Assembly: GCF_031458235.1 (NCBI RefSeq)
Contig: NZ_JAVDYB010000001.1
Span: forward strand, 7,465,001 to 7,529,000
Direction: 5' to 3'
Origin: Catenuloplanes atrovinosus
GTDB lineage: Bacteria; Actinomycetota; Actinomycetes; Mycobacteriales; Micromonosporaceae
Length of the DNA: 64,000 nucleotides
The position numbers were made by a program, and so were the translations under genes. The notes below the pieces were generated by a model. The model saw only the letters and a list, made by a program, of their open reading frames with translations, had not been told where the DNA came from and did no database searches. Positions 4,206 to 49,448 of the stretch are shown piece after piece; position 1 is the stretch's first letter; every line of letters begins with the position of its first letter.

Positions 4206-4208
4206 GGC

Positions 4209-19889: not shown

Positions 19890-19892
19890 GCA

Positions 19893-20843: not shown

Positions 20844-21091
20844 TGTTAGCGCCGGCCGGACAAAGCGGGCGCAATGGCAGCCTGCGAGGAAGTTGCGATC
20901 CAGAAAGGCCGCGCCATCGAGGGGCCCTTCTCGAGGCTCGTAGGCTGGCTCCGCTGGTACGCCCACGCCGTCGCGCTTGCTCCGTAGGACAGACTTAAGG
21001 TTGTCCCGTGCGCCGGCACGCAGATGCAGTGCGGGTCGCCACTGATACCGGGGGTGTGTCGGGCGCCAGGCCCCGCCGTGGCCGGCACGGC

Positions 21092-21302: not shown

Positions 21303-21594
21303 CCGGCAGCCCGGTTTCCCCGTCGCACGGACTCGTCACAGGCGACGGTCAGAAAGGGAAGCGTTCGGCTGCCAACAGCAACGCGAGATCCTGACTGCGG
21401 TCAGGGCCTCGGCGCTCCCCTGGCACCCGAACCAGACAACAGTGGCAATGTCCGCTCCCCTTGCCGGTCACATACAGCCCGGTCTCGATCTTGTCGCGTC
21501 CGCTAGCTGTAGCTGGATACTCTTGCACGGGCACTCGTAATAATGGGCAGCCTGCTGATTCGCACAGTTGATCTTAAGTAGGCAGGGAGGCTCT

Positions 21595-22365
21595 GTGCAG
21601 CTGAGTAGGGTGCACATCCGAAACTTTCGGAACTTCGCCAACCTCAAGATCGACCCGTTCCCGAATCCCGCGGTGATCGTCGGTGAAAACGGCGTCGGGA
21701 AGAGCAATCTGTTGTTCGCTCTGAGGCTGGTCTTGGACCCCGACTTCCCTGACCGGCGTCGGTGGCTACAACCGGACGACATCCATGACGGCGGCCCACC
21801 GATGACGGACGATGCCGAGGTCTCGGTCCAATTCGAGCTGACCGATTTCGACGAGGGCGACGACGCACGAAGCGAACTCGACGGAGCGATCGTCGACACG
21901 GATCCCTTGGTGGCACGGCTGACCTATCTCTTCAAGCCGAAGACCTCATTGGCAGCGGTGCTGGGCACCGCAGCGAGGCCGCCGCTGACGCCGGATGACT
22001 ATCAGTGGACGATCTATGGCGCCGACGATCCGTCCAACGCGATGCTGGCCGCCAAACGCTACGCGGCCTTGTCGGTGCTGCCCCCGCTCCGCGATGCCGA
22101 GGGAGACCTCGACCGACCCGAGCGCAGCCCGCTCACCCGGCTGCTTCGAGAGCTGCCCCCATCGGACGCGAATCTCGGCGATGCGTTGCGCGCGATGCAG
22201 GCGGCCCGCGACAAACTGGGCCGGGATCCGAACTTACGAAAAGTTCGAGGCATGATCCATGACCGCATTGCCGATATGGCCGGTCCGCAGCTTGTCCTGG
22301 CCCCGTCGCTGGCGTTCGCCGGCCGCCAGGAGGACTTGATACAGCAAGGGCAACCCGCAGTCACC
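21595..22365 (+). pseudogene. OLD/RecF-like ATPase, 3' truncated
   Basis: GTG 21595, with GGGAGG 4 bases upstream, starts VQLSRVHIRNFRNFANLKID, then a Walker A GENGVGKSNLLFALR near residues 35-50. This is the N-terminal half-site of an ABC-type ATPase of the OLD/RecF/SMC kind, as in OLD nucleases and several phage-defence proteins. About 257 codons of coherent sequence remain. At about 22363 the DNA switches to the 3' part of an integrase gene, so Walker B and any TOPRIM nuclease domain are lost. The frame continues as meaningless Arg-rich sequence. Confidence 0.75.
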
Positions 22366-23325
22366 GTCGGCACTCCACCACCTGCGCACCACCTTGCGCG
22401 CGGCGCTGAACCTAGCCGTACGCGAGGAGCTGATCGCATCGAACCCGGCCCGGCACGTCGAGATCGTCGGCTACCGGCGCCCGCACGCCCAGGTCTGGAC
22501 GGAAGGCCGCGTCGAGCAGTGGGAGCTCACCGGGGAACACCCGACGGTCGCCGTGTGGATCGCCGCACAACTCGCGTCGTTCTTAGAGGGCGTCGTCGAG
22601 GACTCCCTGTTCGCGTTCTGGTGGCTCGCGGCGCTACGCGGGCTGCGCCGCGGCGAGCTCTGCGGGCTGCGATGGGCGGCTGTCGACCTTGACCGCGGAC
22701 TGCTGTTCGTCGAACGCCAGCGCACCACCGCCGGCTACACCGTCATCGAAGGCGAACCCAAGACCGCCGCCGGCCGCCGGGCCGTCGCCCTGGACAAGCA
22801 CACCGTCACGATCCTGCGTCCACACCGCAGCCGCCAGCTCACCCACCGAGACAACGCCACGGCAACAACCAGGTATGGATCGACTCCGGCTACGTCTTCA
22901 CCCGCAAGGACGGCGAATCGATCAACCCGAGCTACGCCACCACCCGGTTCCGGAAACTCACCAACCGCGCTGGCCTACCCCCGGTCCGGCTCCACGACCT
23001 CCGCCACGGCGCCGCCTCCCTCGCCCACGAAGCCGGCGCGGACCTCAAGACGCTCCAGGACCTGCTCGGGCACTCCAGCATCGTGGTCACCGCCGACACC
23101 TACACCAGCGTCCTACCCGATTCCCAGCGCCGCTGCGCCGACGCCACCGCCGCCCTGGTCCTGGCCGCGGCCCGGCATACCCGCAAACGCATCAAGGAAA
23201 AGGCCGCCAAGAACCGGTCAGCGGGGCGCGGCGAAGAAGAGACACCTTCGGAGGAACGGCCCACCGGCAAGAAGCGAAGCCACAGGTCACGCAGCCGCCG
23301 CCACCCGTTCCGCCACGTAAAGTGA
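22363..23325 (+). pseudogene. Tyrosine integrase remnant (5' truncated and frameshifted)
   Basis: The sequence corresponds to residues from about 152 to the end of the intact integrase at 47858-49273, for example LFAFWWLAALRGLRRGELCGLRW. A frameshift near 22858 moves it to a frame with VWIDSGYVFTRKDGE, HDLRHGAASLAHEAG and TADTYTSVLPD, ending at 23325. The 5' part with the arm-binding and core-binding regions is missing. It was the integrase of an older element whose att end is at 23420-23469. Confidence 0.9.
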
Positions 23326-23419
23326 CGACACCCATGTGCCACCCACACGCCACCCAACCTGCACAAAGGCTGGACAACGAAAAAGGCCCGAACTGCGTTT
23401 CCGCAGCTCAGGCCTTAAA

Positions 23420-23469
23420 CGAAGAAGTGCGCCCGAAGGGACTCGAACCCCTAACCTTCTGATCCGTAG
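23420..23469. repeat. att copy: 3' half of tRNA-Arg(ACG), left end of the inner element
   Basis: These 50 bp are identical to 49368-49417. They include the last 42 bases of the tRNA-Arg gene, from the anticodon loop to the discriminator base, plus 8 bp of 3' flank. The tRNA sequence is not continued to the right, so this is an attachment-site duplicate, not a gene. It marks the junction between two stacked elements. Confidence 0.9.
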
Positions 23470-23852
23470 CACGTTTCCGCAGGTCCAGGCCGAGTACATG
23501 AGCTGAGCGCCTCGCCGATCGATAGCCGCCACTCGGACGTGCTGATGCGGTCGCGCCCGTGCTGAAACGGTCGCCGACATCCGATCACCACCGGATCACC
23601 ACGCGACGCCATCACGCTGCGTAGGAACCGCTTAATCAGTACGGCTCAAGCGAAGAGCCAAGGCCCCCTGCCGCCGAGGCTACTGCGTCATGACATCCCG
23701 CCGTTGCGACATGCGATCACCTACGGATCACCATCCTCGACGCGGCTGCGACCCATCACCCCGAGCCGCCGCCGAGGACAGTAACCCTGAAGGAAGGCAT
23801 CCGATCCATAGATCAGACCGCCTGATCACTCGCCGCTTGACCGTAGGAGTTG
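23470..23852. other. Non-coding left end of the inner element
   Basis: About 380 bp without a supported gene. Several near-copies of GGATCACC occur (around 23590, 23605 and 23717), which could be arm-type integrase sites, though this is a guess. No excisionase gene was recognised. Confidence 0.3.
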
Positions 23853-24104
23853 TCACCCCTGGTCCCGCAGCTCTTCGAGGCTGATGCCGAGGGCCGTCGC
23901 CAGGGACAAGACGGTGAAGTAGCCGGGCTCGATCACATGTCCTCGTTCGATCTTTCTGAGCGTTGACACAGCGACCTGTGCAAGAGCTGCGAGCTGCTCC
24001 TGGGTCATTCCATGCTCGTCACGCAACGAGCGCAGCCTCGTTCCGAGCCGCTTCGCTTCCTCACGGAACCGGCTCTCCTCTCGCTTCGCGCGCCCCGCTG
24101 GCAT
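23853..24104 (-). CDS. XRE-family helix-turn-helix repressor
   Basis: An 83-residue protein with an HTH of the XRE/Cro type (about residues 20-75: LRSLRDEHGMTQEQLAALAQVAVSTLRKIERG). It is divergent from the ATPase-subtilase pair, separated by about 170 bp, and a 34-bp palindrome covers its own promoter. ATG 24104 is preferred: TTGACC (24134-24139, minus strand), 16 bp, then TACGCT (24112-24117) would place transcription start almost at the ATG, giving a leaderless message. A longer in-frame reading would start inside the operator. It probably autoregulates and may control the divergent pair. Confidence 0.85.
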   Translation of the reverse strand: MPAGRAKREESRFREEAKRLGTRLRSLRDEHGMTQEQLAALAQVAVSTLRKIERGHVIEPGYFTVLSLATALGISLEELRDQG

Positions 24105-24116
24105 GTCAACCAGCGT

Positions 24117-24150
24117 AGTGATAAATTTTGAGCGGTCAAGATTTATCACT
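24117..24150. promoter_or_regulatory. Palindromic operator overlapping the XRE promoter
   Basis: Two 15-base arms, AGTGATAAATTTTGA and TCAAGATTTATCACT, are inverted copies with one mismatch around a 4-base centre. The palindrome covers the likely -35 (TTGACC, minus strand) and the spacer of the XRE gene. It is strikingly AT-rich for this genome. Most likely the binding site of the XRE protein itself. Confidence 0.8.
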
Positions 24151-24276
24151 TAGGCCCTCAGTCGCGGACGAGGCGCTTTCGCGTCGCTACAGGGGTCAGC
24201 TCGACGGCTCCTCGTCAGGCAGGATGGACCCAGGGGAACCGGACAGCGGCAAGCGAAGGGCGGGTGTGAGGCTCAC

Positions 24277-25266
24277 GTGGCAACGGCAGACCAAGTGAAA
24301 GCACTCGTCAAGAGCCATGGCGAGGGCGACAGCGCACGCTTCTACTCTGTGGCGTTGCAGGTAGCCGCAAGTGCAGCGCGTAGCGGGCAAGGCCGATTCG
24401 CTCAGGAGCTACGCGACCTCGTGGACGGCCTTCAAACCCGGCCAAGTCGTATCACTAATGCTGGTCGACCGGTTCCTGTTGCCCGTCCGCGAGGTGAGCT
24501 CGCCGACCTTCTGACCGTCGCATATCCCGATAGCCGACTCGCGGACTTGTGTCTTGAGGATGGTGTGCGGCAGCGGCTAGATCGGGCGTTGCTCGAGCAG
24601 CGTCAGCAAGACCGCCTCCGGGAGCGAGGTTTTCATCCGCTGCGTCGGCTATTGCTGCTCGGCCCTCCCGGGACCGGCAAGACGATGACCGCCAACGTGC
24701 TCGCCGGTGAGCTGCGCCTGCCCTTGTTCACCATCCGGCTTGACGGCCTGATCACGAAGATGATGGGCGAGACGGCCGCCAAGTTGCGCCTAGTCTTCGA
24801 CGCCCTGGCGGAGACGCGCGGGGTGTACTTGTTCGACGAATTGGACGCCCTAGCCGGCGAACGCACGCTGGGCAACGACGTCGGGGAAATCCGGCGAGTC
24901 CTCAACTCGTTCCTTCAGTTCCTCGACCAGCCCGACTCGCCAAGTCTCTTAATCGGCGCGTCGAATCACCCGCAGCTACTCGACCGGGCACTGTTCCGAC
25001 GATTCGATCTGGTAGTGGACTACCCACTACCAACACGCGACGTCGCCCGAGCGGTCATTCGCAACCGATTGGCTACGATGAGTCCGCGGCGTTGGGCGTG
25101 GGAACGAGTTGACGAGGCTGCAGCCGGCCTGAGCCACGCAGAGATCACCGTCGCCTGCGAGTTGGCAGCGAAGGAGGCCATCCTGTCCGAGCAGCAGCAC
25201 GTCACGATCGCCTCGCTGATCGTCGCACTGAAAGAACGGCGACGCGCAGCGCCTGGCGTCCGATAA
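24277..25266 (+). CDS. IetA-like AAA+ ATPase
   Basis: A 329-residue AAA+ protein. A helical N-terminal domain (1-110) is followed by Walker A GPPGTGKT (129-136), Walker B YLFDELD (184-190), a sensor-1 Asn (GASNHPQ) and RRFD with the arginine finger, then a small helical lid. The start is GTG 24277. Its stop is 3 bp before the subtilase gene, so they form one operon. An AAA ATPase followed by a subtilisin-like protease is the layout of IetA/IetS, first reported as a stability and incompatibility pair of Agrobacterium plasmids and later listed among predicted antiphage systems. By analogy the ATPase would restrain or load the protease. The family link is made from architecture. Confidence 0.85.
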   Translation: MATADQVKALVKSHGEGDSARFYSVALQVAASAARSGQGRFAQELRDLVDGLQTRPSRITNAGRPVPVARPRGELADLLTVAYPDSRLADLCLEDGVRQRLDRALLEQRQQDRLRERGFHPLRRLLLLGPPGTGKTMTANVLAGELRLPLFTIRLDGLITKMMGETAAKLRLVFDALAETRGVYLFDELDALAGERTLGNDVGEIRRVLNSFLQFLDQPDSPSLLIGASNHPQLLDRALFRRFDLVVDYPLPTRDVARAVIRNRLATMSPRRWAWERVDEAAAGLSHAEITVACELAAKEAILSEQQHVTIASLIVALKERRRAAPGVR

Positions 25267-25269
25267 CCC

Positions 25270-27828
25270 ATGCAACCTCGCAACCGCGTACATCTCATCC
25301 TCCGCGCCCGCGCATCCGCCGAGCCGTATACCCGTCCCCCGGGCGGCGGGGGAGGCGCACAAATTCCTGCCCCGACGGACCGGCAGTCGCACATCCAGCA
25401 CCTCCGCGACCAACTTGAGGAAGTCGAAGCCACCGCCGCCAGTTCCCGCACTGATCGGCCCTACGCCGTCGACGGCGCTATTGACGGCGTCTACCTGGGG
25501 TTCGACAGCTTCCCGGGCATTCATCTGGCTCTCGAATCACTCGATCCACGCGCCGGTCGGCAGCACCCTGAACTCATTTCCGTCCAGGAGGTCGCCACTG
25601 CATCAGGCGTAGTGGAGCACGCGACGGTGTTCGTGCCCGACGGAACAATGGGATACTTCATCTCGCGGCTGCAGGAATACGCAGAGACAGCGGCACAAGA
25701 CAACCCCCGCCATCGCAACCTCATCGACCGCATCCACCAGATCAGTCTGGCGACGATCGAAACGCTATGGACTGATCCACCTGGTGAGTTCCCCGAACCG
25801 ACCACCGTGGTGTGGTGGGAGGTCTGGCTACGCCGACGCGATGGCGAAGAGCTGACTCGGTTCAGACACTTCGCTTCCCAGGCCGATATCCAGGTCAGCG
25901 GGCAAACGCTCGGCTTCGGTGAACGCGTCGTCGTCTTGGCCCACGCTACGGCAGAGCAACTCGCCGGGGCCCTTGACGTCCTCGACGATCTTGCTGAGCT
26001 CCGTCGTGCGCACGAGCTGACACCGATCATTGCGTTGGAGCCCGCCGCTGAGCAGGCCGACTGGGTCACACAACTGGCGACGAGAACCCGACCAGCCGAC
26101 ACGGATGCTCCCACGGTCTGCGTTCTCGATACCGGAGTACACCGCACCCACCCGCTGCTCGCGGGCTCGCTATCGGAATCCGACAGCCACGCCAGCGACG
26201 CCAGCTGGGGCATCCATGATCACGACGGGCACGGCACCGAAATGGCCGGCCTGGCGCTGTACGGGCCGTTCGGCGACGAACTCCTTTCGAACCGCGAGAT
26301 TCGACTCCGCCATCGACTCGAGTCCGTGAAACTGCGGCCGCCACCACCGCGGTTTAACCCGCCAGAGCTCTACGCCGCCGTCACCGCCACTGCAACCAGC
26401 CGGGTCGAGATCGCCGCACCCGAGAGACGGCGGGTCTTCTCGCTGGCCATGACCGCCAGCGACTCCACCGGGCCCGACGGAGCCTCTGCAATCATGATCG
26501 GCCAGCCGACATCCTGGTCCGCGTCCATCGACGCACTGGCCGCGGGCCGATCCGTCGCCACAACCAGCGAAGGGCTGGTCTTCGTCGAGGCACCAGACAA
26601 CGACGGACGCCGACTGTTCCTCGTCTCGGCCGGAAATGTCGATTCATCACGCTTCGAGACAGACCACCTGCAGCGAAGCGATCTTGAAGCGGTCCAGGAT
26701 CCCGCACAGGCATGGAACGCTCTGACAGTCGGTGCCTACACCCGCAAAGACAGCCTCGCCACAGCCCGCCGGGACTGGAACGGCTGGACACCCGTCGCGT
26801 CACGAGGCGAACTGTCGCCCCACTCACGCACGTCGGTCGCGTACCACTCCGCATGGCCCGTCAAACCGGATGTGGTATTCGAGGGCGGCAACATCGCCCG
26901 TTCTCCGGACGGCACCAGCTTCGACACCCCCGAAGAACTCCAACTGCTTACCACCAGGGCTCCGTTGAGAGACTCCCGACTACTGTCGGTTACCTGCGCC
27001 ACCAGCGCCGCGACCGCGCAGGCCGCACACCTCGCCGCATCCATCATGGCGGACTACCCGTCGCTGTGGCCTGAAACGGTGCGCGCCTTAATCGTGCACT
27101 CCGCCGAGTGGACCGACGCCATGCGCATACACGTAGACGACGCCACCAAGAAAGCCGATCTCCGTGCCGTTCACCGCCGCTACGGCATGGGCGTACCCGA
27201 CCTGGAACGCGCCACCCGCAGCGCGGGCGATGCGCTTACCCTCATCGCCCAGGATGTCATACACCCGTTCCGTAATGGTGAGACATGCGAGATGCACCTG
27301 CACGATCTTCCGTGGCCGGCTGACATCCTCGCCGACCTGGGTGACGCGACGGTCAGACTCCGGGTCACCCTGTCTTATTTCATCGAGCCGAACCCCGGAC
27401 GTCGAGGCTGGAAAGGCCGATACAGCTACGCCTCCCACAACCTGCGCTTCGACATACGCCGGGCAACGGAGTCCACCGACGATTTCCGTAAGCGCCTCAA
27501 CCGACGCGCTCTCGCCGAGGAGGAAAACCGGCCTCGCAGTGCCGACGACACCGGACGCTGGACTCTGGGCCCTACCCTGCGCACCGCAGGCTCACTACAC
27601 ACGGATATTTGGGAGGGCACCGCAGCCGACCTGGCAAATCGCGGCGCCATCGCGGTCTACCCGGTAACCGGCTGGTGGAAGGACAATAAGCGCCGTGACG
27701 GCAGCGACCTCGGCGCCCGTTACGCGCTCGTGGTATCGATCGAGACTCCGGAGTCAGAGGTGGACATCTGGACACCCGTCGCACAACAGATCGGCGTGCC
27801 AGTTTTGATCGAGATCTCCCACCACTGA
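25270..27828 (+). CDS. IetS-like subtilisin-family (S8) protease
   Basis: An 852-residue protein. The first 280 residues are a non-catalytic region, rich in Gln/Glu near 40-55. The S8 domain carries the full triad: Asp287 in CVLDTGVHRTHP, His321 in DHDGHGTEMAG, and Ser579 in CATSAATAQAA, with oxyanion Asn456 in SAGN. A C-terminal domain of about 200 residues (beta-rich, LRVTLSYFIEPNPG) follows. No signal peptide or propeptide cleavage site is obvious, so it should act inside the cell. It is encoded directly behind the AAA+ gene. In the Agrobacterium pair the protease is the toxic partner. The substrate here is unknown. Confidence 0.85.
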   Translation: MQPRNRVHLILRARASAEPYTRPPGGGGGAQIPAPTDRQSHIQHLRDQLEEVEATAASSRTDRPYAVDGAIDGVYLGFDSFPGIHLALESLDPRAGRQHPELISVQEVATASGVVEHATVFVPDGTMGYFISRLQEYAETAAQDNPRHRNLIDRIHQISLATIETLWTDPPGEFPEPTTVVWWEVWLRRRDGEELTRFRHFASQADIQVSGQTLGFGERVVVLAHATAEQLAGALDVLDDLAELRRAHELTPIIALEPAAEQADWVTQLATRTRPADTDAPTVCVLDTGVHRTHPLLAGSLSESDSHASDASWGIHDHDGHGTEMAGLALYGPFGDELLSNREIRLRHRLESVKLRPPPPRFNPPELYAAVTATATSRVEIAAPERRRVFSLAMTASDSTGPDGASAIMIGQPTSWSASIDALAAGRSVATTSEGLVFVEAPDNDGRRLFLVSAGNVDSSRFETDHLQRSDLEAVQDPAQAWNALTVGAYTRKDSLATARRDWNGWTPVASRGELSPHSRTSVAYHSAWPVKPDVVFEGGNIARSPDGTSFDTPEELQLLTTRAPLRDSRLLSVTCATSAATAQAAHLAASIMADYPSLWPETVRALIVHSAEWTDAMRIHVDDATKKADLRAVHRRYGMGVPDLERATRSAGDALTLIAQDVIHPFRNGETCEMHLHDLPWPADILADLGDATVRLRVTLSYFIEPNPGRRGWKGRYSYASHNLRFDIRRATESTDDFRKRLNRRALAEEENRPRSADDTGRWTLGPTLRTAGSLHTDIWEGTAADLANRGAIAVYPVTGWWKDNKRRDGSDLGARYALVVSIETPESEVDIWTPVAQQIGVPVLIEISHH

Positions 27829-28206: not shown

Positions 28207-30618
28207 GTGGAGCGGGTGCGGAAGTTGACGTTGCCGCAGTTGGAGCGGCATCTGTTCGCGGCGGCGGACATCCTGCGGGGCAAGATGGATGCCTCCGAGT
28301 TCAAGGAGTACATCTTCGGGATGCTGTTCCTGAAGCGCGCATCGGACATGTTCGACGCCGAACGGGAACGGGTCCTGGCACGCTACGCCAGCCGCGGCGA
28401 GCAGGACGCCGAGCACCGCGCCGAGCAGCCCGAGTCGTACCGGGAGGCGTTCTTCGTCCCGAAGACCGCCCGCTGGCACCACCTGCGCCGGCTGCACGAC
28501 AACGTCGGCGACGGCATCAACAAGGCGCTCTCGGCACTGGAACAGGCCAACCCGGAGTCGCTGGAGGGCGTGGTCCAACACATCGACTTCAACCGGCAGG
28601 TCGGCAACTCCCGCATCCCCGACAAGAAGCTGCGCGACCTGATCGCCCACTTCAGCCATTACCGGCTGCGCACCGAGGACTTCGAGTTCCCCGACCTGCT
28701 TGGCGCGGCCTACGAATATCTAATCAAGGAGTTCGCGGACTCGGCCGGCAAGAAGGGCGGCGAGTTTTATACCCCGCGCGCCGTGGTCCGAATGATGGTG
28801 CGGCTCGTCAAGCCGACCGAAGCCATGAGCGTGTACGACCCGTGCTCCGGCTCAGGCGGCATGCTCATCCACGCCAAGGAGTATGTCGAGGAGCACGGCG
28901 GTAACCCGCGCAATCTGCTCCTGGCCGGGCAAGAGAACGCAGGCAGCGTCTGGTCCATCTCGAAGATGAACCTTCTGCTGCACGGCATCCCCGACGCGAA
29001 GATCGAAAACGACGACACCCTGGCCAACCCGCGCCACGCCCACAGCGGCCAACTCGACCTGTTCGACCGGGTACTGTCCAACCCGCCGTTCTCGCTGAAC
29101 TACTCGAGCGACGGCATGAAGTACAGCAACCGCTTCCGGTGGGGTTGGGCGCCCGAGGGCGGCAAGAAGGCCGACCTCATGTTCGTCCAGCACATGGTTG
29201 CCGTCCTCAAGAACAGCGGCGTCGCCGCCACCGTCATGCCGCACGGCGTGCTGTTCCGCGGCGGCGCCGAGCGGGAGATCCGCACCAACCTGCTCAACGA
29301 CGACGTCATCGAGGCCATCATCGGGCTGCCGCCGAACCTGTTCTACGGCACAGGCATTCCCGCCTGCGTGCTGGTGCTGCGTGCCCCCAAGAGTAAGCCA
29401 GCCGCCCGGACGAACAGGGTGCTGTTCATCAATGCCGACCACGAGTATGCTACCGGCCGCGCACAGAACTACCTGCTGCCCGAGCACATCGAAAAGATCG
29501 TGTACGCGTACGAGGCATTCACGGACATCCCCGGCTACGCCCGCGTGGCAACCCGCGACGAGCTGCGCGACAACGACGACAACCTCAACATCCGCCGCTA
29601 CGCCGACAACGCCCCACCGCCGGAGCCGCACGACGTGCGCGCCCACCTTCACGGCGGCGTACCGAAGTCCGAGGTCGCTGACAAGGCCGACCTGTTTGCC
29701 GCGCACGGCTTCACTTCCAACGCCGTGTTCGTCGACCGAGACGACGCCTACTACGACTTCGCGCCGGGCGTCGACCGTGCGGCGCTCGACACCCTGGTCA
29801 TCGACCATGCCGGGGTACGCGGCCGGGAGGCGACGCTGGCCACCGCGCAGCGCGAGTGGTGGGACGAGCACCATAAGCTCGTTGTCGAACTGCCGTCGAC
29901 GAAGCGGCTGATGGCCGCCCGGACCGAGCTGATCGACTCCTTCACCACGGCGCTGCTGCCGGTCGGGCTACTTGACCGGTTCCAGATCGCGGGCGTGATC
30001 GTACGCTGGTGGGACTCCAACCAGTATGATTTGCGCACTTTGACCACGCACGGTTTCGGTGGCGTGGTTGACGGCTGGGTCACAACTATCGGCGCCGCGC
30101 TGGAAGACGAGCGGTCGAAGATCGACCCGCTGGAACACCGGCTGGTGCCGAAGCTGGTTCCCGAGTATCTGGAGGAGTTGGCCTCTGTCGAGGCACAACG
30201 CGCCGAGCTCGACGCGCAAATCAAGGCGGCTACAGCCCCGGCCGACGAGGATGACGAGCCGGCGGAGGAGGACGCCGAGGATGGGGTCAGCCCGGCGGAG
30301 CTGAAACGGCTCAAGGTGGAGCTGACCAAGGTGCGCAAGCGGCAGCGGGAGCTGAAGGCCGACTTCGTCGCCACCCTGAATCGGGCGCGGGCTGCGCTGG
30401 CCGGCCCCCAGGAGCAGGACCTCGTGATAGAGATCTGGAACGAGGACCTGACCGCGCACCTGGACGGGTACGTGGCTGCCCACCGTCGCCAGGTGGTCGC
30501 CGCGTGCCAGCACTGGTGGGACCAGTACGCCGTCTCCCTAGCCGACGTTGAAGCCCAGTGCGTCGCCGCCAGTGTCCAGCTCACCACCTACCTCAAGGAG
30601 CTGGGCTATGCAAAGTGA
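28207..30618 (+). CDS. hsdM: Type I restriction-modification methyltransferase HsdM with long C-terminal extension
   Basis: An 803-residue N6-adenine methyltransferase. The HsdM N-terminal helical domain (about 5-150) precedes the catalytic domain with SAM motif [10 protein letters not shown] and catalytic NPPFS. After about residue 480 comes an extension of more than 300 residues that includes a charged, Glu/Asp-rich segment ([16 protein letters not shown]) and coiled-coil-like helices ([19 protein letters not shown]). Typical HsdM proteins are near 500-550 residues. The first candidate start is GTG 28207; GTG 28216 is also possible. The 3' end overlaps hsdS by 11 bp. Confidence 0.92.
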
Positions 30619-31828
30619 GGATCGCCGCCAACCTTGGCCGATGAGGCGACTTGGAGACCTTGCAACCAAGATCCAGGACGGTACTCACTTCTCACCGTCG
30701 TCGAAGACCGGCCCTTTCCGGTACTTGACGTCTCAGAATGTGAGGTTGGGCTATCTAGACCTCAGCAAGTCGGGTTGGATTTCCGCGGCGGAGCACGGTC
30801 AAATCTACCGTCGTTGCGATCCCCAGCGCGGAGACCTCCTACTGACGAAGGATGGCGCAAACACCGGCAACGTGGCGCTAAACACACTGAACGAGCAGTT
30901 CAGCTTGCTGTCAAGTGTGGCAATGATTCGGTTTGACGAGGCTAGAGCGCATCCTTCGTTCTTTCTTCAGTACCTTGCCTCACCGGAAGGTCAGGCAAGG
31001 CTGAAGGATCAAGTGTCGGGTAACGCAATTACCCGACTTACGCTTGCCAAAATCCGGAACTTCGTCGTGCCTGCACCGCCGACTAGAGTACAGCGGCAAA
31101 TCGCGGAAGTCTTGAACTCGGTAGACGAGTCCATCCGCTCCACCGAGCGCGCGATCGCTAAATTGGGACGAACGTCCAGCGCTATGCTCGCAGATCTATT
31201 GCGAGCAGGTGACGGATGGAGGCGGCTGCGGTTGAGAGAACTGCTTGCTGGTGCGCCGAAGAACGGCTATAGCCCAAGGGAAGCTGAGACGCCGACGGGG
31301 ACCTTGATGCTCGGCCTGGGTTGCCTGACGCCCCGAGGATTTGTTCCACGTCAACTCAAGCATGCGCCATCTGGTGACTCCGCACTGCGGCGGGCGATTC
31401 TGGTTGACGGAGACTTGCTTATGTCCAGGGCGAACACTCGGGAGCTAGTTGGTTTAGTCGGTCGCTATAAAAGCGTTGGATTTCCGTGCATATACCCTGA
31501 CTTAATGATGCGGCTTACGCCTACGAATGAGATGCGTGCAGCTTTTCTTGAACTGATTTTGAGGTCGCCGTCCGTTCGTAAGCAGATTCAAGCGTATGCG
31601 GTGGGAACATCAGAGAGCATGGTAAAGATCAGTGCTGCCGTGGTTCTCAACTTGCGTGTGGCAGTGCCTTGTCTCGAAGAGCAGGATCGGATAGTTGCTA
31701 CCTTTCTACGCTGCGACGCGCAGCTAAACGCGCTTACCCAGAAACAAGAAAAGCTGCAGCGGGTAAAGCGGGGGCTGATGGAAGATTTGCTAACAGGGCG
31801 GGTACGGCTTCCGGTGGAGAGGACTTAG
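30608..31828 (+). CDS. hsdS: Type I restriction specificity subunit HsdS
   Basis: A 406-residue DNA-recognition subunit with two target-recognition domains (about 10-170 and 215-375), each followed by a conserved helix: [27 protein letters not shown] and [27 protein letters not shown]. These act as the ruler between the two half-sites and bind HsdM. ATG 30608 lies inside the hsdM end, with AAGGAG 7 bases upstream, so translation is coupled. The gene is noticeably AT-richer than hsdM and hsdR, consistent with exchange of specificity genes. Confidence 0.92.
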
Positions 31829-31832
31829 CGGC

Positions 31833-34800
31833 GTGGCGTCGGAATACGAGCGGGTCGAGCGCCCGCTGGCTGAGCAACTCGTGCGGATGGGCTGGCGGCA
31901 TATCGAGGGCACCAAGGCCGACCCGCCAACCGTCACGGGCCGCGAGAATTTCCACGACGTACTGTTGCTCGACCGGCTCCGCACGGCCCTGCGCCGGATC
32001 AACCTCAACGACGAGGGCCGGGAGTGGCTCGACGACGGTCGGATCAGGCAGGCCATCTCTCAGCTCACCCGGCCGCAGGCCACCTCGCTGCTGGAGATCA
32101 ACGAGGAGCTGACCGAGAAGCTGCTGCACGGCGTCACCGTCGAGGGCGTGCCGGGCTGGCACGGCGGCCGGGACCGTACCGTCCACTTCATCGACTGGAC
32201 GAGCCCTGACCCGCTGGAACGCAATGACTTTCTGGTGGTCAATCAGTTCCGGGTCGACCCGCCCGGGGGGCGTACTCCGATCTGGCCGGACGCCGTACTG
32301 TTCGTTAACGGCATACCGGTCGTTGTGGTGGAGGCGAAATCCCCGACGAAGGCCGACCCGATGGGCGACGCGATCGACCAGCTCCGGCGGTACGCCAACC
32401 AGCGCGGCTCGGTCGAGCCAGAGGGCAGCGAGCGGCTGTTCCATACCAGCCAGTTCCTGGTCGCCACCTCGTTCGACGAGGCGAAGGTGGGCACGTTCAC
32501 CTCGTTAGGCGAGCACTTCGCGGAGTGGAAGACGACGGCGCCCCTACCGGAGAAGGCCGTAGCGGGCGAACTGAGCGTGGCGCGGTTGTCGCCGCAGCAG
32601 CGCTTGGTCGCGGGGATGCTGCACCCAGCCCGGCTGCTAGACATGGTGCGGCACTTTACGCTGTTCATGCAGCCTGAGGACCGGAGAATCAAGGTGATCG
32701 CGCGGTACCAGCAGTACCGGGCGGTGCAGGCCACCGTCGACCGGCTGGTCACCGCGCCGACCCGGGCGCAGGACGGCACGCACGACCGGCGGGGCGGGAT
32801 CATCTGGCACACCCAGGGCTCCGGCAAGAGCCTGACCATGGTGTTCCTGGTCCGGGCAATGCGTTCGCGCCCGGCGCTGGTTGGGTTCAAGGTCGTTGTG
32901 GTTACCGACCGGCGCGATCTGCAGCGCCAGCTTGCGGCGACTGCCGAGCTGACTGGCGAGACAGTGCACACCGCCACTAGCGTGGCCCAGGCGAAGGATT
33001 TGCTCGCCACGCCGGGCAAGGCGCTGACCTTCGTGATGATCCAGAAGTACCGCAACCCGGAGGTCGGCAAGGATGCCGACCCGGAGCTGAAGACCATCGG
33101 TGAGTTGGACGCCTCGCCCGAGGTGCTGGTGCTGGTGGACGAGGCGCACCGCTCGCACGCCAGTGCGCTGCATGCCGCGTTACGCACGGCCCTCCCGAAC
33201 GCCGCGCGGGTTGGCTTCACCGGTACGCCGATCATCATGGGTGCGAAGAAGAAGACCCACGCGGTCTTCGGCGACTACCTAGACCGGTATGACATCCGCC
33301 AGTCGCAGGCGGACGGCGCCACCGTGCCGATCGTGTACGAGGGCCGCACCACCCGCGGCGGCGTCGCAGACGCCGACGACATCGACGAGTTCATCGATCT
33401 GTACGGCCTCACCCCCGAGGAGACCGAGCAGGTCAAGCAGCGCTACGCCACCAAAGCGCACGTCAACGAGGCCGAGCAGCTCATCGCCGCCAAGGCACGT
33501 AACATGCTCCGCCACTACGTCGACGTGGTGCTGCCCAACGGGTTCAAGGCGCAGGTGGTGGCCAGCAGCCGGCGGGCCACCGTCCGCTATCGCACCGCGT
33601 TCCTGGCCGCCCGCGACCAGCTGGTGGCCGAGCTGGACGCCCTGGACCCGGTGTGGCGCGAACCCGGGGCCCTGGCCCGAGTTGACCGGCTGCCGGCCAA
33701 GCGAGCCACGCTGGTGCGCGCCTGGCCCTACCGGGACGTCATCGCCGCCCTGGACTTCGTCCCGATCATCTCCGGTGCGCAGAACGACCCGGCCGAGCTG
33801 GCCGCGTGGACCAGCGGCTACGAACAGGCCATCGAGGATTTCAAGGCCAAGAAGCTGCCCATGCCGGGCGTGCCAGCCGAACAGATTAGCCCGGTCGCCA
33901 TGCTGATCGTCAACGCAATGCTGCTGACCGGCTTCGACGCCCCCCGCGAACAGGTCCTCTACCTCGACAAGGCGCTGCGCGAGGCCGACCTGCTCCAGGC
34001 CATCGCCCGGGTCAACCGCACCGCGCCCGGCAAGACGGCCGGATACGTCGTGGACTACTACGGCGTCGCCCACCACCTCGCGCAAGCGCTGGAGGCATAC
34101 GCCCCGGACGACATCGAGGGCGCGCTGACCAGCCTGGATGATGAGGTGCCGCGGCTGGCCGCCGCGCATGCCGCCGTCCGGCAACTCTTCGCCGGCATCC
34201 AGAACTTCAGCGCCGTAGCTGCGCAGGACGCCTGCGTGGATGCTCTCGCGGACGAACGGCTGCGAGCGAGGTTCGAGACCGCGCTCAAGACGTTCACCCG
34301 CAGCCTGGAGATTGTGCTGCCGGCGGAGAAGGCGCTGCCGTACGTGGCCGACGCCAAGGCGTTCGGGACCATCGCCCACCTCGCTCGGCGCCGCTACCGC
34401 GACCACACGCTGTTCGACGTGCGGGTCTACGGCGAGAAGGTACGGGCGCTGATCGACGCGCATGTGCGCGCGCTGGGCATCGAACAGAAGATCCCGCCGA
34501 TCTCTATCACCGCCGCCGACTACGCCGAGAAGGTCAGCGGACTGAACAGCCCACGCGCCAAGGCGTCGGAGATGGAACATGCCATCCGCCACCACATCAG
34601 CGAACATATGGACAGCGACCCCGCCCACTACCAGCGGCTGTCCGAACACCTGGAGCAGATCCTCACCGAGCTGAAGGACCAGTGGGAGCAGCTCGCCCTC
34701 GCCCTGGCCGACTTCCTGCCAGTGGCGACCGCTGGGCGCACCGAGGCCACCCACGGGCTCGACCCGCGCACCGAGGCGCCGTTCCACGACCTCATCGCCC

Positions 34801-35087
34801 AGGCCCTGGCCGACAACGGCCGGCCCATCACCCCCGAGCGTGCGGGACCACTGCGGCAGGCCACCATCGACGTCGTGCACCTCATCCGCGACGACGTACG
34901 CTTGGTCGGCTTCTGGGACAACCCCCACAAGCGCGAACAGCTCCGCCGCGCGGTCTTCGCCCGCCTCGACGATACCCGGCTGGAGGACGGCAGCGACCTG
35001 TTCGACTATGCCACGCTGCGCCCACTGGCCGACCGGCTCCTGGAACTGGCCAAGCACAACCATCGCCGGCTGGTGTCGCCGACGTGA
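31833..35087 (+). CDS. hsdR: Type I restriction endonuclease subunit HsdR
   Basis: A 1084-residue motor-nuclease. The N-terminal nuclease domain has PDAVLFVNGIPVVVVEAKSP (PD...ExK). The translocase follows with Walker A HTQGSGKSLT, DEAHRSH (Walker B/DEAH), GFTGTPI (motif III) and later ARVNRTAPGK. The C-terminal helical region binds the methylase complex. GTG 31833 starts 4 bp after the hsdS stop. With HsdM and HsdS it forms the complete restriction complex that cuts unmodified foreign DNA. The gene looks intact and of normal length. Confidence 0.95.
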   Translation: MASEYERVERPLAEQLVRMGWRHIEGTKADPPTVTGRENFHDVLLLDRLRTALRRINLNDEGREWLDDGRIRQAISQLTRPQATSLLEINEELTEKLLHGVTVEGVPGWHGGRDRTVHFIDWTSPDPLERNDFLVVNQFRVDPPGGRTPIWPDAVLFVNGIPVVVVEAKSPTKADPMGDAIDQLRRYANQRGSVEPEGSERLFHTSQFLVATSFDEAKVGTFTSLGEHFAEWKTTAPLPEKAVAGELSVARLSPQQRLVAGMLHPARLLDMVRHFTLFMQPEDRRIKVIARYQQYRAVQATVDRLVTAPTRAQDGTHDRRGGIIWHTQGSGKSLTMVFLVRAMRSRPALVGFKVVVVTDRRDLQRQLAATAELTGETVHTATSVAQAKDLLATPGKALTFVMIQKYRNPEVGKDADPELKTIGELDASPEVLVLVDEAHRSHASALHAALRTALPNAARVGFTGTPIIMGAKKKTHAVFGDYLDRYDIRQSQADGATVPIVYEGRTTRGGVADADDIDEFIDLYGLTPEETEQVKQRYATKAHVNEAEQLIAAKARNMLRHYVDVVLPNGFKAQVVASSRRATVRYRTAFLAARDQLVAELDALDPVWREPGALARVDRLPAKRATLVRAWPYRDVIAALDFVPIISGAQNDPAELAAWTSGYEQAIEDFKAKKLPMPGVPAEQISPVAMLIVNAMLLTGFDAPREQVLYLDKALREADLLQAIARVNRTAPGKTAGYVVDYYGVAHHLAQALEAYAPDDIEGALTSLDDEVPRLAAAHAAVRQLFAGIQNFSAVAAQDACVDALADERLRARFETALKTFTRSLEIVLPAEKALPYVADAKAFGTIAHLARRRYRDHTLFDVRVYGEKVRALIDAHVRALGIEQKIPPISITAADYAEKVSGLNSPRAKASEMEHAIRHHISEHMDSDPAHYQRLSEHLEQILTELKDQWEQLALALADFLPVATAGRTEATHGLDPRTEAPFHDLIAQALADNGRPITPERAGPLRQATIDVVHLIRDDVRLVGFWDNPHKREQLRRAVFARLDDTRLEDGSDLFDYATLRPLADRLLELAKHNHRRLVSPT

Positions 35088-35842: not shown

Positions 35843-36052
35843 AGCGGCATTCCGGGCGGCCGTCGACGAACGGCGACGGGATGACGATCGGCGAAGTGGC
35901 GCCGGAGGAGTCAGCCGCCGAGTTGGTCGTGCGAATCTTCAAGCATCTTCACCACGTGGGTCAGGTGGTGTGCCGTACCCCAGGCTCGCCATCCTGCCGC
36001 GTTCCCGGGGCCGCCGACCATGGCGGCTCGTTGCGCGATCTCGGCATCACCC
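35843..36052. repeat. Direct repeat shared with 21092-21302
   Basis: About 210 bp cover the last 47 codons of the Beta-family gene and 68 bp beyond its stop. The second copy lies after the BcgI-like operon in the same orientation. The copies differ by scattered substitutions and small indels. Confidence 0.8.
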
Positions 36053-36966
36053 CAGGAGTACGCGGCGCCTTCTGCCGGCCAGTGATCCGCCGCCACCAGC
36101 GATGCGCAGAGGTCGTACATGCCCTTGTGGCCGTTGCCGTCTCGCGCCCACCGATATATCCACCACACGTCCTCGTCGGTGTACCGAAGGTTCGGAGGCG
36201 GAGGCCATCCCTTGACCTTCATCTTGGGATGGGCGATGCCGTAGTCCCCGAAGACGATGTCGGGTTCTTGGAGGCGCCTCCAGAGAGCCAGGTCGCGTCT
36301 GGGTATGGGGGTCGCGATGTTGTACGGAAGGTCACCGATCGATTCCGGCATTGCCCCTGAAGCCACCGTGATGGATTCCCACGGATAGCGCCGCGCCCAC
36401 ACCAGGCACTTCCGTGCCAGCGCTTCGACTCTGCCGATGTCACGTTCGGAGCGAACGTCGAAGAAGTCAAGAACAAGTGCTGACTTCTCGATAGTCGTCC
36501 CCGCTCGCCGGCAGAGCTTGGCCAGCGACGCTTCGGCTTCATCTTCATCAGGATCGGCGATGTCACCGCCGAGCCGGATGACAACCTGCCCATCATGCAT
36601 CTCCGCAGCCTGTCCAGCCTCGACCAACCGGCGCTCGGAGTCGTTCAGATGGAGAACCGGCCGGATGGGGACACACCAGTCGGCGAAATCGTCGGCGATA
36701 GCTTGCAGCGGTCCTCGCCAGGCTCCGTCCGGATCATCCAGGTAACGAGCGTCGACTGCCGCGGCCATACCCCGCGGTATTACGTCACGGGCCTTCTCGG
36801 CGAAGCTGTGGGCGTCCTTGATCGGATCCCCGCTCGTGGGCGGCACCTCGAAGACCGGCATTACCTTCGCCGCCAGCGCTTCTGGCAGATGGTCGATGGC
36901 TTTGAGTTCACCTTCCCGGCCCTTAAGTATGGGCATGTAGACCACGGCGCACCCTTCGCTGGCCAT
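35911..36966 (-). CDS. Beta-family protein (phage T4 Beta-protein-like)
   Basis: A 351-residue protein with the layout of the T4-like Beta protein family: YMPILKGREGELKAI at the N terminus, MPVFEVPPTSGDP, and a C-terminal VWWIYRWARDG region with EIAQRAAMVGGPGNAAGW. The repeated barrel-like strands PVLHL, LVLDFFDV and ESITVASGAMP suggest a TIM-barrel-like fold, which is an inference. It is convergent with the type I restriction operon. A decayed second copy lies in the same position next to the BcgI-like system. The function is unknown; its company suggests a part in defence. Confidence 0.8.
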   Translation of the reverse strand: MASEGCAVVYMPILKGREGELKAIDHLPEALAAKVMPVFEVPPTSGDPIKDAHSFAEKARDVIPRGMAAAVDARYLDDPDGAWRGPLQAIADDFADWCVPIRPVLHLNDSERRLVEAGQAAEMHDGQVVIRLGGDIADPDEDEAEASLAKLCRRAGTTIEKSALVLDFFDVRSERDIGRVEALARKCLVWARRYPWESITVASGAMPESIGDLPYNIATPIPRRDLALWRRLQEPDIVFGDYGIAHPKMKVKGWPPPPNLRYTDEDVWWIYRWARDGNGHKGMYDLCASLVAADHWPAEGAAYSWGDAEIAQRAAMVGGPGNAAGWRAWGTAHHLTHVVKMLEDSHDQLGG

Positions 36967-47857: not shown

Positions 47858-49273
47858 ATGACCAACACCAGCGCAACATTCAAGCGATGCGGATGCCGCA
47901 ACAGCCACGGAAAACGCCTGGAACAGAACTGTCCCCGGCTCACCGAGCGCGGCCACGGCTCCTGGTACTTCCAGTGCTTCGCGCCGAACCTGTTCGGCCG
48001 ATCCGCACGCATCCGTCGCGGCGGTTTCTCGTCGCAGGCCGCTGCCCGGCAGGCGCGGGAAGAACGCTTGGCCGACAACACCGCCCGGCGCCGCGGTGAC
48101 GGCTGGACCGCCGAACGGTGGCTACGGCACTGGCTCGACACCCGCACCCGGATCCGGCCGACCACCCGGCTGCACTACACCCGCGACGTCGAACTCGTCC
48201 TCATCCCACGCATCGGCCACTACCGGCTCTCTGATCTCGACGGTCCGCTGCTGCGGGCGGTGTTCGCCGAGATCGCCCAGACCACCAACGCCAAGGGCCT
48301 TCCACAATCCCCGTCGGCGCTCAATCACCTGCGCACCACCCTGCGCGCCGCGCTCAACCTCGCCGTCCGCGAGGAGCTGATCGAGTCGAACCCGGCCCGG
48401 CACATCGAGATTCACGGCTACCGGCGCCCGCACGCCCAAGTCTGGACCGACGGACGCGTCGAGGAATGGCAGCGCACCGGCGAACACCCATCGGTCGCGG
48501 TATGGACCGCGAAACAACTCTCCACGTTCCTGGAAGCCAACGTCGAGGACTCGCTGTTCGCGTTCTGGTGGCTCGCCGCCCTACGCGGCCTCCGTCGTGG
48601 TGAACTCTGCGGCCTACGGTGGGCCGCCGTCGACCTCGACCGCGGGCTGCTGTTCGTCGAACGGCAACGCACCACCGCCGGCTACGACGTCGTCGAAGGC
48701 GACCCCAAGACCGCTGCCGGCCGCAGAGCCGTCGCTCTGGACAAGCACACCGTCGCGATCCTGCGCCAGCACCGCCGCCGCCAACTCGACCGCCGCGACC
48801 GCCGACACGCCGCCAACATGACGTGGGCCGACTCCGGCTACGTGTTCACCCGCAAGGACGGCCAGCCGATCAACCCGAACTACGCTACCACCCGGTTCCG
48901 GAAACTGACCGAACGCGCCGGATTGCCGCCGGTCCGGCTGCACGACCTGCGACACGGCGCCGCGTCGCTGGCCCACGAGGCCGGCGCCGACCTGAAGACC
49001 CTGCAGGACCTGCTCGGACACTCCAGCATCGTCGTCACCGCCGACACCTACACCAGCGTCCTGCCCGACGCCCAACGCCGCTGCGCCGACGCCACCGCAG
49101 CCCTGGTCCTCGCGGCAGCCCACCACACCCGGAAACGAATCAAGCAGAAAGCGGCGAAGAACCGGCCCGCCGGACGCGACGAAAAACAAACCACCCCAGC
49201 CGACAAGCCCGATCAGACCACGCACCGCCGCAGGTCACGAGGCCACAAACACCCGCGCCGTCACGGAAAGTAG
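47858..49273 (+). CDS. int: Tyrosine integrase of the tRNA-Arg island
   Basis: A 471-residue site-specific recombinase. The N terminus has a Cys cluster (C11, C13, C25, C40) and an AP2-like strand region (SWYFQCFAPN), then a SAM-like core-binding domain. The catalytic domain has Arg246 in GLRRGEL, HDLR with His362 and Arg365, His388 in LLGHSS and the nucleophile Tyr398 in TADTYTSVLP. The C-terminal tail is very basic. It ends about 100 bp from the tRNA-Arg 3' end, facing it, as integrases of tRNA-targeting elements do. A 5'-truncated relative lies at 22363-23325, also just before an att copy. Confidence 0.96.
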   Translation: MTNTSATFKRCGCRNSHGKRLEQNCPRLTERGHGSWYFQCFAPNLFGRSARIRRGGFSSQAAARQAREERLADNTARRRGDGWTAERWLRHWLDTRTRIRPTTRLHYTRDVELVLIPRIGHYRLSDLDGPLLRAVFAEIAQTTNAKGLPQSPSALNHLRTTLRAALNLAVREELIESNPARHIEIHGYRRPHAQVWTDGRVEEWQRTGEHPSVAVWTAKQLSTFLEANVEDSLFAFWWLAALRGLRRGELCGLRWAAVDLDRGLLFVERQRTTAGYDVVEGDPKTAAGRRAVALDKHTVAILRQHRRRQLDRRDRRHAANMTWADSGYVFTRKDGQPINPNYATTRFRKLTERAGLPPVRLHDLRHGAASLAHEAGADLKTLQDLLGHSSIVVTADTYTSVLPDAQRRCADATAALVLAAAHHTRKRIKQKAAKNRPAGRDEKQTTPADKPDQTTHRRRSRGHKHPRRHGK

Positions 49274-49367: not shown

Positions 49368-49417
49368 CGAAGAAGTGCGCCCGAAGGGACTCGAACCCCT
49401 AACCTTCTGATCCGTAG
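49368..49417. repeat. att site within tRNA-Arg(ACG), right end of the inner element
   Basis: Identical over 50 bp to 23420-23469. The shared core ends inside the anticodon loop of the tRNA, the usual crossover region for tyrosine integrases. It keeps the tRNA gene whole after integration. Confidence 0.9.
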
Positions 49418-49448
49418 TCAGATGCTCTATCCATTGAGCTACGGGCGC
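49376..49448 (-). tRNA. tRNA-Arg (anticodon ACG)
   Basis: 73 nt with full cloverleaf: acceptor GCGCCCG/CGGGCGC, D arm GCTC/GAGC, anticodon arm TCTGA/TCAGA around CTACGGA (anticodon ACG), T arm AGGGG/CCCTT with TTCGAGT. No CCA is encoded. It is the integration target of the island. Confidence 0.97.

What the first reader, a model, noticed from the sequence alone, without database searches (positions are those of the whole stretch)
23853..27828. IetAS-like ATPase-subtilase module with its own XRE repressor and large operator
An AAA+ ATPase with intact Walker motifs is followed 3 bp later by an 852-residue subtilase with full Asp287/His321/Ser579 triad and no export signal. A divergent 83-residue XRE protein has a 34-bp near-perfect AT-rich palindrome over its promoter. 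IetA/IetS pairs are known as a plasmid stability system and listed as predicted antiphage systems. A dedicated repressor suggests the toxic protease is kept low and released on infection or element loss. The 280-residue N-terminal and 200-residue C-terminal parts of the protease are uncharacterised.
Basis: partly seen in the sequence, partly recalled or inferred. Interest (0 to 1): 0.75.

Follow-up and report, generated by a model that had tools for sequence, protein, structure and literature searches.

The report
Protease toxin pair with portable repressor
A bacterial island carries a known ATPase–protease defence/stability pair behind a small repressor and a 36-base operator, and in relatives the same repressor–operator unit stands in front of a different version of the pair or a different candidate defence gene, so it looks like a swappable switch.

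Summary
The pair is IetA/IetS: PADLOC 1e-71 and 4e-42; 53% and 41% identical to the Ti-plasmid pair. The XRE gene and palindrome are real but not part of IetAS in general: 6 of 61 ietAS loci surveyed have the XRE, all in the window's family, where 6 of 9 ietAS genomes have it. Across six loci the operator converges on a perfect 36-bp palindrome, centred 29 bp from the XRE start codon, over a promoter that looks leaderless. In one genome the unit fronts a diverged ietAS allele; in two others it fronts a DUF5131 gene facing TcmP, a candidate defence gene. The window pair lies on a 26-kb tRNA-Arg(ACG) island. In two Micromonospora genomes gene calls show only xre, ietA and ietS between tRNA-Arg repeats 4.8–4.9 kb apart. 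Best reading: a portable autorepressor cassette, probably silencing ietAS. Repression, trigger and phage defence are untested.

The parts
23853..24104 (-). XRE-family (HTH_3) regulator gene, 83 aa, probably leaderless
   Evidence: start codon position kept in six loci
24116..24151 (.). 36-bp operator; the consensus of six loci is a perfect 18/18 palindrome centred 29 bp from the XRE start codon
24134..24139 (-). inferred -35 element of the XRE promoter (TTGACC), in the operator core
   Evidence: hexamer at a fixed 16-nt spacing is TTGACC in 4 of 6 loci
24112..24117 (-). inferred -10 element of the XRE promoter (TACGCT; TANNNT in 6 of 6 loci), ending 7 nt before ATG
24277..25266 (+). ietA: AAA+ ATPase, presumed antitoxin or regulator of IetS
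25270..27828 (+). ietS: subtilase (S8) without export signal, presumed toxin or effector; ferredoxin-like domain about 180-250, catalytic domain about 280-650, C-terminal beta domain about 650-825
23383..23469 (.). left att copy: 3' part of tRNA-Arg (23427-23469 identical over 43 nt; 92% over 88 nt)
49375..49448 (-). tRNA-Arg(ACG), right boundary of the 26-kb island
47858..49273 (+). tyrosine integrase of the island, next to the tRNA
   Evidence: Phage_integrase 6.4e-23
28207..35087 (+). type I restriction-modification genes hsdM, hsdS, hsdR, island cargo next to ietAS
35911..36966 (-). Beta_protein family gene (PD-Lambda-2 C-type), island cargo

Best explanation
A member of the IetAS family, carried as cargo on a tRNA-Arg island of a Micromonosporaceae chromosome and placed under a portable autorepressor cassette. 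Shown by sequence: an XRE protein with a 36-bp near-perfect operator at a fixed distance from its start codon, in the only gap between it and ietA. Inferred: an XRE dimer (or two) binds the operator over its own -35 and spacer, holding its leaderless transcript and the divergent ietAS transcript low. IetA, made in the same transcript, keeps the IetS subtilase in check. A trigger that removes XRE, or loss of the element, raises or unbalances ietAS so that IetS digests cell or phage proteins. Because the cassette is self-contained (gene, promoter, operator), it can be recombined in front of other potentially harmful cargo: it is seen with two IetAS alleles and with a DUF5131 gene facing TcmP.
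For: IetAS identity: PADLOC IetA 1.3e-71 and IetS 3.8e-42; the pTi pair scores 2.6e-71 and 4.8e-25 on the same library. Alignment to pTi IetA 53% over 326 columns and IetS 41% over 840. Cassette: 8 of 354 family genomes hold the XRE gene at E<=1e-14 and 9 of 354 hold IetS at E<=1e-20; 6 hold both, side by side, against 0.2 expected (hypergeometric 9e-10; genomes are related, so this overstates). In the 8 the divergent neighbour is ietA (6) or a DUF5131 gene (2). Operator: 81% mean pairwise identity over 36 bp in six loci, against 35% for the 11 bp on the XRE side and 29% for the 36 bp on the other side (ungapped); the consensus is an 18/18 palindrome. A degenerate operator pattern with up to 3 mismatches hits 4 of 397 order genomes, each at xre-ietAS; the reversed control hits none. 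Promoter: TANNNT in 6 of 6, always 7 nt from ATG/GTG. The stretch VAVST[LV]RKIE (recognition helix by recalled HTH layout) is shared by the six that share the operator; the two with another operator have IGIATLRKIE. Allele exchange: G370 has XRE 73% but IetA 53% and IetS 41-42% identical to the window. Toxicity logic by homology: the SGI1 subtilase is toxic and its ATPase neutralises it (PMC5006074, section 3).
Against: No promoter pointing at ietA was identified; the sigma-70 scan found none on either strand at its threshold, so it does not recognise the inferred XRE promoter either. In the window the operator ends 125 bp before ietA, so control of ietAS is not forced by geometry, though the gap is 43-54 bp in G370, G496 and G479. 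In G496/G479 TcmP runs convergent to DUF5131, so the cassette could control only DUF5131; TcmP matches the PADLOC candidate models only weakly (best 2.4e-05), so the defence label rests on DUF5131. G419/G467 have a diverged XRE (54-55%) and lack the wide palindrome. Three of nine ietAS genomes of the family lack the XRE (G492, G604, G607). SGI1 data were read by their authors as a need for positive activation. I have no binding, expression or phage data.
Confidence: 0.68

Rival explanations
1. XRE represses itself but activates ietAS (dual regulator), so the pair needs XRE to be on.
For: The operator sits about 51-140 bp upstream of ietA in four loci, compatible with activation. In SGI1 the homologous pair did not act from its own promoter and the authors inferred a need for positive activation (PMC5006074, section 3).
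Against: In 55 of 61 ietAS loci this XRE was not found in the upstream stretch searched, so activation by it is not a family requirement; I saw no conserved rightward promoter next to the operator in the six sequences printed.
Confidence: 0.14
2. XRE controls only itself or the mobility of the element; ietAS is a neighbour and not a target.
For: The operator is built round XRE's own promoter. The G264, G370 and G091 cassettes lie beside tRNA-Arg and the window's lies beside its att copy.
Against: Gene calls show no recombination gene between the repeats in G264 or G370. No direct repeats of 22 nt or more were found in the 4.5-6 kb round the G496/G479 cassettes. The divergent neighbour is ietA or DUF5131 in 8 of 8. 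G370 keeps the cassette although its ietAS allele differs.
Confidence: 0.12
3. XRE is a third, protein-binding antitoxin of IetS rather than a transcription factor.
For: Weak XRE similarity to type II antitoxin HTH families (TIGR03070 39.7 bits, below its cut-off of 71.65).
Against: The same XRE faces DUF5131 in two genomes with no IetS hit. The operator is conserved. In the related SGI1 pair the ATPase alone counteracted the toxin (PMC5006074, section 3).
Confidence: 0.03
4. Chance neighbourhood: the XRE gene and palindrome have nothing to do with each other or with ietAS.
For: Not found in most ietAS loci surveyed.
Against: Fixed 29-bp geometry and 81% operator identity in six loci; co-occurrence 6 of 8 XRE with 9 of 354 IetS genomes.
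Confidence: 0.03

Closest known systems
IetAS of Ti plasmids (pTiC58 type; L101, NZ_KY000036.1)
   Same: Adjacent AAA ATPase and subtilase genes; IetA 53%, IetS 41% identical over most of their length; catalytic residues conserved
   Different: The pTi locus has no divergent XRE (a DUF6088 gene lies upstream); the window copy is chromosomal, on a tRNA-Arg island, with an operator and XRE
SgiAT (S026-S025) of Salmonella genomic island 1
   Same: Described as homologous to IetA/IetS; toxic subtilase neutralised by the ATPase; stabilises an integrative element when the helper plasmid is present (PMC5006074, section 3 part 1 and a figure legend)
   Different: No XRE described with it in what I read; regulation stated there to remain to be identified; not compared directly here
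BrxR/CapW (WYL), CapK+CapS and RptR regulators of defence operons
   Same: Regulators encoded next to defence operons; BrxR and CapK+CapS accompany several unrelated systems; CapS binds palindromes and autoregulates (PMC9122601 abstract and outline; PMC13373217 passages; PMC12255303 abstract and outline; PMC9122588 listing only)
   Different: BrxR/CapW carry WYL domains and CapS a STAS domain with a partner kinase; this one is a bare 83-aa HTH_3 protein with a 36-bp operator and an apparently leaderless promoter; RptR's reported minimal site is a 6-bp palindrome
CapH+CapP of CBASS
   Same: Regulator of an immune operon (named in a passage of PMC13373217; HTH + peptidase make-up recalled)
   Different: Only a generic HTH similarity (capH model 6.9e-06); no CapP-like gene was noticed beside XRE in the gene calls, not searched with a CapP model
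Nuclease-protease pairs shared by several immune systems (PMC12799240, abstract and outline)
   Same: A module repeatedly joined to unrelated defence systems
   Different: There the module is an effector; here it is a transcription switch

Membership tests
IetAS (PADLOC IetA/IetS) | Two adjacent genes, AAA ATPase then subtilase | tested here: met
   3 bp apart
IetAS (PADLOC IetA/IetS) | Best PADLOC families are IetA and IetS | tested here: met
   IetA 240 bits, IetS 142 bits; pTi control 239 and 86 bits
IetAS (PADLOC IetA/IetS) | Near full-length homology to the Ti-plasmid pair | tested here: met
IetAS (PADLOC IetA/IetS) | Intact Walker motifs and Asp/His/Ser triad | tested here: met
IetAS (PADLOC IetA/IetS) | Toxicity of IetS and rescue by IetA; plasmid stability or phage resistance | not testable with these tools
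   only by homology (PMC5006074 section 3)
NCBIfam IteA/IteS anti-phage equivalogs (NF042959, NF042956) | Curated equivalog score cut-offs of 510 and 900 bits | tested here: not met
   201.5 and 60.9 bits; the pTi pair also fails, 198.8 and 39.9, so this is a narrower group and the window pair is not filed in it
XRE/HTH_3 regulators | HTH_3 above the Pfam gathering score | tested here: met
   56.7 bits against 23
XRE/HTH_3 regulators | Sequence-specific binding to the palindrome | not testable with these tools
   conservation only
Regulators portable between defence systems (BrxR, CapW, CapK/S kind) | Homologous regulator and operator in front of unrelated defence operons | tested here: met
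   two ietAS alleles and DUF5131 facing TcmP; the defence role of the latter is a PADLOC candidate only
Integrative element at tRNA-Arg(ACG) | Direct repeats of the tRNA 3' end at both ends, and an integrase | tested here: met
   for the window
Integrative element at tRNA-Arg(ACG) | Excision or transfer | not testable with these tools
   no experiment; no empty site of the same species seen

The most novel reading that the evidence does not exclude
The XRE-operator unit is a plug-in licensing switch: a self-contained leaderless autorepressor that silences potentially harmful defence cargo on arrival and can be reassorted between unrelated systems. Together with ietAS it forms a minimal mobile unit (tRNA-Arg repeat - xre - ietA - ietS - repeat, 4.8-4.9 kb, no integrase found) moved in trans by integrases of larger islands at the same tRNA.
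Probability: 0.3. Interest if true: 0.7.

Novelty: new variant of a known kind. Interest (0 to 1): 0.5.

Why it matters
How cells keep toxic defence modules quiet is an open question, and for the IetAS homologue SgiAT the mechanisms of regulation were said to remain to be identified (PMC5006074, section 3). A conserved operator with fixed geometry, found with two IetAS alleles and one other candidate system, gives a directly testable switch in actinomycetes. The repeat-flanked xre-ietAS units without a recognised integrase suggest how such pairs travel. The DUF5131/TcmP genes, only a candidate so far, gain indirect support as defence genes.

Tried and rejected
XRE as a core IetAS component: rejected, 6 of 61 loci. 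The 61 are counted as fetched: L033/L034/L035 and L094/L095 show the same identity figures and are probably near-copies, and L013/L014 are two Lentzea. Dropped before the count: six of the 45 loci with no ietA match at 1e-15 (L005, L036, L039, L042, L044, L047), the duplicate stretches L070 and L098, and the G135 fragments. L080 (IetA 39%, IetS 29%) is counted though it may lie outside IetAS. The stretch searched was 1500 bp, but less was available in L009, L029, L040 and L043. L078 has a weak hit in a 347-aa frame (16.9 bits), not counted.

XRE hit in G008 (43%): looked at. It lies in a frame of about 305 aa on an 8.7-kb contig; the genome has no IetS match, and the 270 bases printed show no operator; not counted as a cassette.

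Operator in viral contigs: none with an exact 20-base core. XRE in plasmids: no match. IetS in phages: 2 of 50,697 records. ietA DNA in E. coli genomes: no match.

Sigma-70 and terminator scan of 23850-24400: nothing; the actinobacterial -35/-10 reading rests on recalled consensus plus conservation, with the 16-nt spacing fixed by me in the script.

The N-terminal 260 residues of IetS alone (model pLDDT 86.4): no Foldseek match at E<=0.001; VIA-align best Z 7.9 (rmsd 3.4, 80 aligned), ferredoxin-like folds, among them the subtilisin inhibitor POIA1 (1v5i_B, Z 6.5, rmsd 3.9, 73 aligned). A retained propeptide-like domain is possible but not shown. Residues about 1-175 were barely tested.

A clean empty tRNA site was sought with flank searches. 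These mainly returned the tRNA 3' end and other loci; four fetched stretches have the tRNA without a second copy inside the stretch (L141-L144), but no flank-by-flank comparison is claimed.

A first script for the XRE set took two loci (L071, L097) in the wrong orientation; it was redone and only the second is used for proteins and profile. The XRE tree has weak internal support (0.15, 0.44) and is not used. One paper search (TcmP/DUF5131) returned unrelated uses of the letters; another returned nothing.
Full report
WHAT IS THERE. The three genes and the palindrome are at the stated places. The window is bases 7,465,001-7,529,000 of an 8.9-Mb single-contig genome. Its family includes a genome (G264) with a contig of 250,473 bases, the same length as the Micromonospora arborensis contig found by name, each holding an IetS 74% identical to the window's, so I take the family to be Micromonosporaceae. 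The genome has one IetS match; the DNA search gives one further hit, a 136-bp stretch in the ietA part.

IDENTITY OF THE PAIR. The best PADLOC families are IetA (1.3e-71) and IetS (3.8e-42). Against the Ti-plasmid locus, IetA is 53% identical over 326 aligned columns and IetS 41% over 840. NCBIfam's IteA/IteS anti-phage equivalogs are hit but far below their cut-offs (201.5 of 510, 60.9 of 900). The Ti-plasmid pair fails them too (198.8 and 39.9) while scoring as IetA/IetS in PADLOC. So the pair is IetAS in the broad sense and is not filed with the narrow NCBIfam group. D287, H321, N456 and S579 are invariant in 29 IetS. IetS relatives occur in 483 of 72,556 plasmid records, 338 of them predicted conjugative (E<=1e-5), and at E<=1e-20 in 14 of 397 genomes of the order and 9 of 354 of the family.

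THE PROTEASE. The model (29 sequences; pLDDT 81.9, pTM 0.72) aligns residues 280-824 with KP-43 (1wmd, Z 25.4, rmsd 2.9, 374 aligned), while subtilisins without the extra domain align about 240 residues and end near 650. The N-terminal 260 residues alone give a confident model (86.4) with a ferredoxin-like domain at about 180-250 just before the catalytic domain, the place of a subtilisin propeptide. The fold matches are generic (best Z 7.9), so an autoinhibitory role is conjecture.

THE REPRESSOR CASSETTE. The XRE gene is found at E<=1e-14 in 8 of 354 family genomes. Six of them (G000, G091, G264, G370, G419, G467) carry ietAS beside it. Two (G496, G479) are not among the 9 genomes with an IetS match. 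There the divergent neighbour is a DUF5131 gene (PADLOC candidates PDC-M41B 1.5e-106 and PDC-M30B 1.3e-101; Pfam DUF5131 1.5e-98), with a convergent TcmP gene beyond it (TIGR04474, 136 bits against a cut-off of 53; but only 2.4e-05 to PDC-M41A). These family scans were run on the G496 copy only; the G479 copy was recognised by eye from its translation. In the order set, XRE at E<=1e-13 is in 5 of 397: four of the above and G008, a 43% hit without IetS match or visible operator. In six of the eight loci (window, G091, G264, G370, G496, G479) an AT-rich palindrome is centred exactly 29 bp from the XRE start codon. Over 36 bp the mean pairwise identity is 81%, against 35% in the 11 bp beside it and 29% in the 36 bp beyond (ungapped, so perhaps understated), and the majority consensus is a perfect palindrome, TAGTGATAAATTTTGACC/GGTCAAAATTTATCACTA. 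The window copy has 15 of 17 dyad matches; none of 1000 shuffles exceeded 13. A degenerate form of the operator with up to 3 mismatches hits 4 of 397 order genomes, each time beside xre-ietAS, with no hits for the reversed control. In the window's own 8.9-Mb genome it hits that one place only, so XRE looks like a local regulator.

PROMOTER LOGIC. Read towards XRE, the six loci have TANNNT ending 7 nt before ATG or GTG; the hexamer 16 nt further up is TTGACC in 4 of 6 (TTGACT in G091, TGGACC in G370). By the recalled actinobacterial consensus this is a promoter whose transcript would begin at the start codon, a leaderless mRNA, and the operator covers its -35 and spacer: the classical layout of autorepression. 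The consensus scan tool does not report it. The rightward genes have Shine-Dalgarno-like sequences in at least four of six loci, but I found no conserved rightward promoter. In G370, G496 and G479 only 43-54 bp separate operator and next gene, so a promoter there would abut or overlap the operator. In the window the gap is 125 bp. G419 and G467 have a diverged XRE and no wide palindrome; the same GATAAA half-site recurs there with 2 bp between half-sites instead of 16 (read), and the stretch IGIATLRKIE stands where the six have VAVST[LV]RKIE.

EXCHANGE OF CARGO. G370 has the cassette at 73% XRE identity but IetA 53% and IetS 41-42%, at the same tRNA and flanking gene as G264, which has XRE 69%, IetA 84% and IetS 74%. 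The cassette is thus combined with two ietAS alleles and one unrelated gene. Most ietAS loci surveyed lack it: 6 of 61 have it. Family loci without it include G604/G607, where a TmtA gene lies upstream of ietAS (TmtA call made on G604), and G492.

THE ISLAND. The 3' end of tRNA-Arg(ACG) (49375-49448) recurs at 23427-23469 (43 nt identical; 92% over 88 nt), and a tyrosine integrase (47858-49273) lies next to the tRNA. The window's ietAS is therefore at the distal end of a 26-kb island that also carries a type I restriction system and a Beta_protein gene. In G264 and G370 the same tRNA has a second repeat 4,937 and 4,775 bp away (83 nt at 86%, 50 nt at 98%), and my gene calls find only xre, ietA and ietS between them. 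In G091 the cassette is at the same tRNA, but no second repeat was found in the 16-kb stretch and the IetS match ends at residue 797. Relative to the tRNA the window's cassette is in the opposite orientation to those three, so it is not simply the same element.

HOW IT PROBABLY WORKS. Shown: sequence conservation, geometry, co-occurrence, exchange. Inferred: XRE binds the operator and represses itself and ietAS; IetA restrains IetS; loss or inactivation of XRE or of the element frees IetS. For the homologous SGI1 pair the subtilase is toxic, the ATPase neutralises it, and the pair stabilises the island when its helper plasmid is present (PMC5006074, section 3, part 1). Its authors inferred a need for positive activation, which keeps the activator rival open. 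The anti-phage label rests on database names and on an association in Pseudomonas (PMC11878078, passages), not on anything tested here.

NOVELTY. Regulators shared between unrelated defence systems are known: BrxR (PMC9122601, abstract and outline), CapK/CapS (PMC13373217, passages); RptR goes with type I restriction systems (PMC12255303, abstract and outline). A bare XRE with a leaderless promoter and a 36-bp operator shared by IetAS and DUF5131 did not appear in my searches. In the listings for 'ietAS', for IetS with IetA, for XRE family with defence, autorepress and operator terms and for three-Cys-motif/DUF5131/PDC names, no title or displayed abstract start described it; I did not read those papers in full. 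Hence: new variant of a known kind.

Noticed in passing
L134 (G386:C20:40500-50000), 1166-7924: Two partial tRNA-Arg repeats 6.7 kb apart enclose hsdM, hsdS and hsdR, and no integrase in the gene calls: another small repeat-flanked defence cassette.
   Followed up: partly
L133-L144: tRNA-Arg(ACG) looks like an integration hotspot: of 12 Micromonospora stretches that I picked from hits (not a random sample, and cut at 6-20 kb), 4 have the tRNA plus a further copy, 4 have two partial copies, 4 have only the tRNA.
   Followed up: partly
window 17766-23320: Left of the att copy lies what looks like a second, decayed element: an integrase fragment (22394-23320, Pfam 20.2 bits, below its cut-off), a RecF/SMC-like AAA fragment (21568-22692) and a type IIG restriction-methylase gene with a specificity gene (17766-20843).
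   Followed up: partly
L099/L100 (G496, G479): DUF5131 and TcmP genes overlap tail to tail by 11 bp; only DUF5131 faces the XRE operator.
   Followed up: partly
L094, L095, L097: Large TmtA (PADLOC 1790 and 1467 bits for L094 and L097) encoded near ietAS; the L095 gene looks the same but was not scanned.
   Followed up: no
L096/L097 upstream of XRE: The GATAAA half-site recurs in a narrow palindrome (2-bp spacing) instead of the wide one (16-bp), reminiscent of the narrow and wide CapS sites in PMC13373217.
   Followed up: no
L069 (G091): The G091 copy looks damaged: the IetS match ends at residue 797 and no second tRNA-Arg repeat was found.
   Followed up: no
window 38043-42851: 1602-residue RHS-repeat protein carried on the same island.
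   Followed up: no
L101 (pTi) 3153-3746: A DUF6088 gene lies directly upstream of the Ti-plasmid ietAS, where the window has XRE.
   Followed up: no
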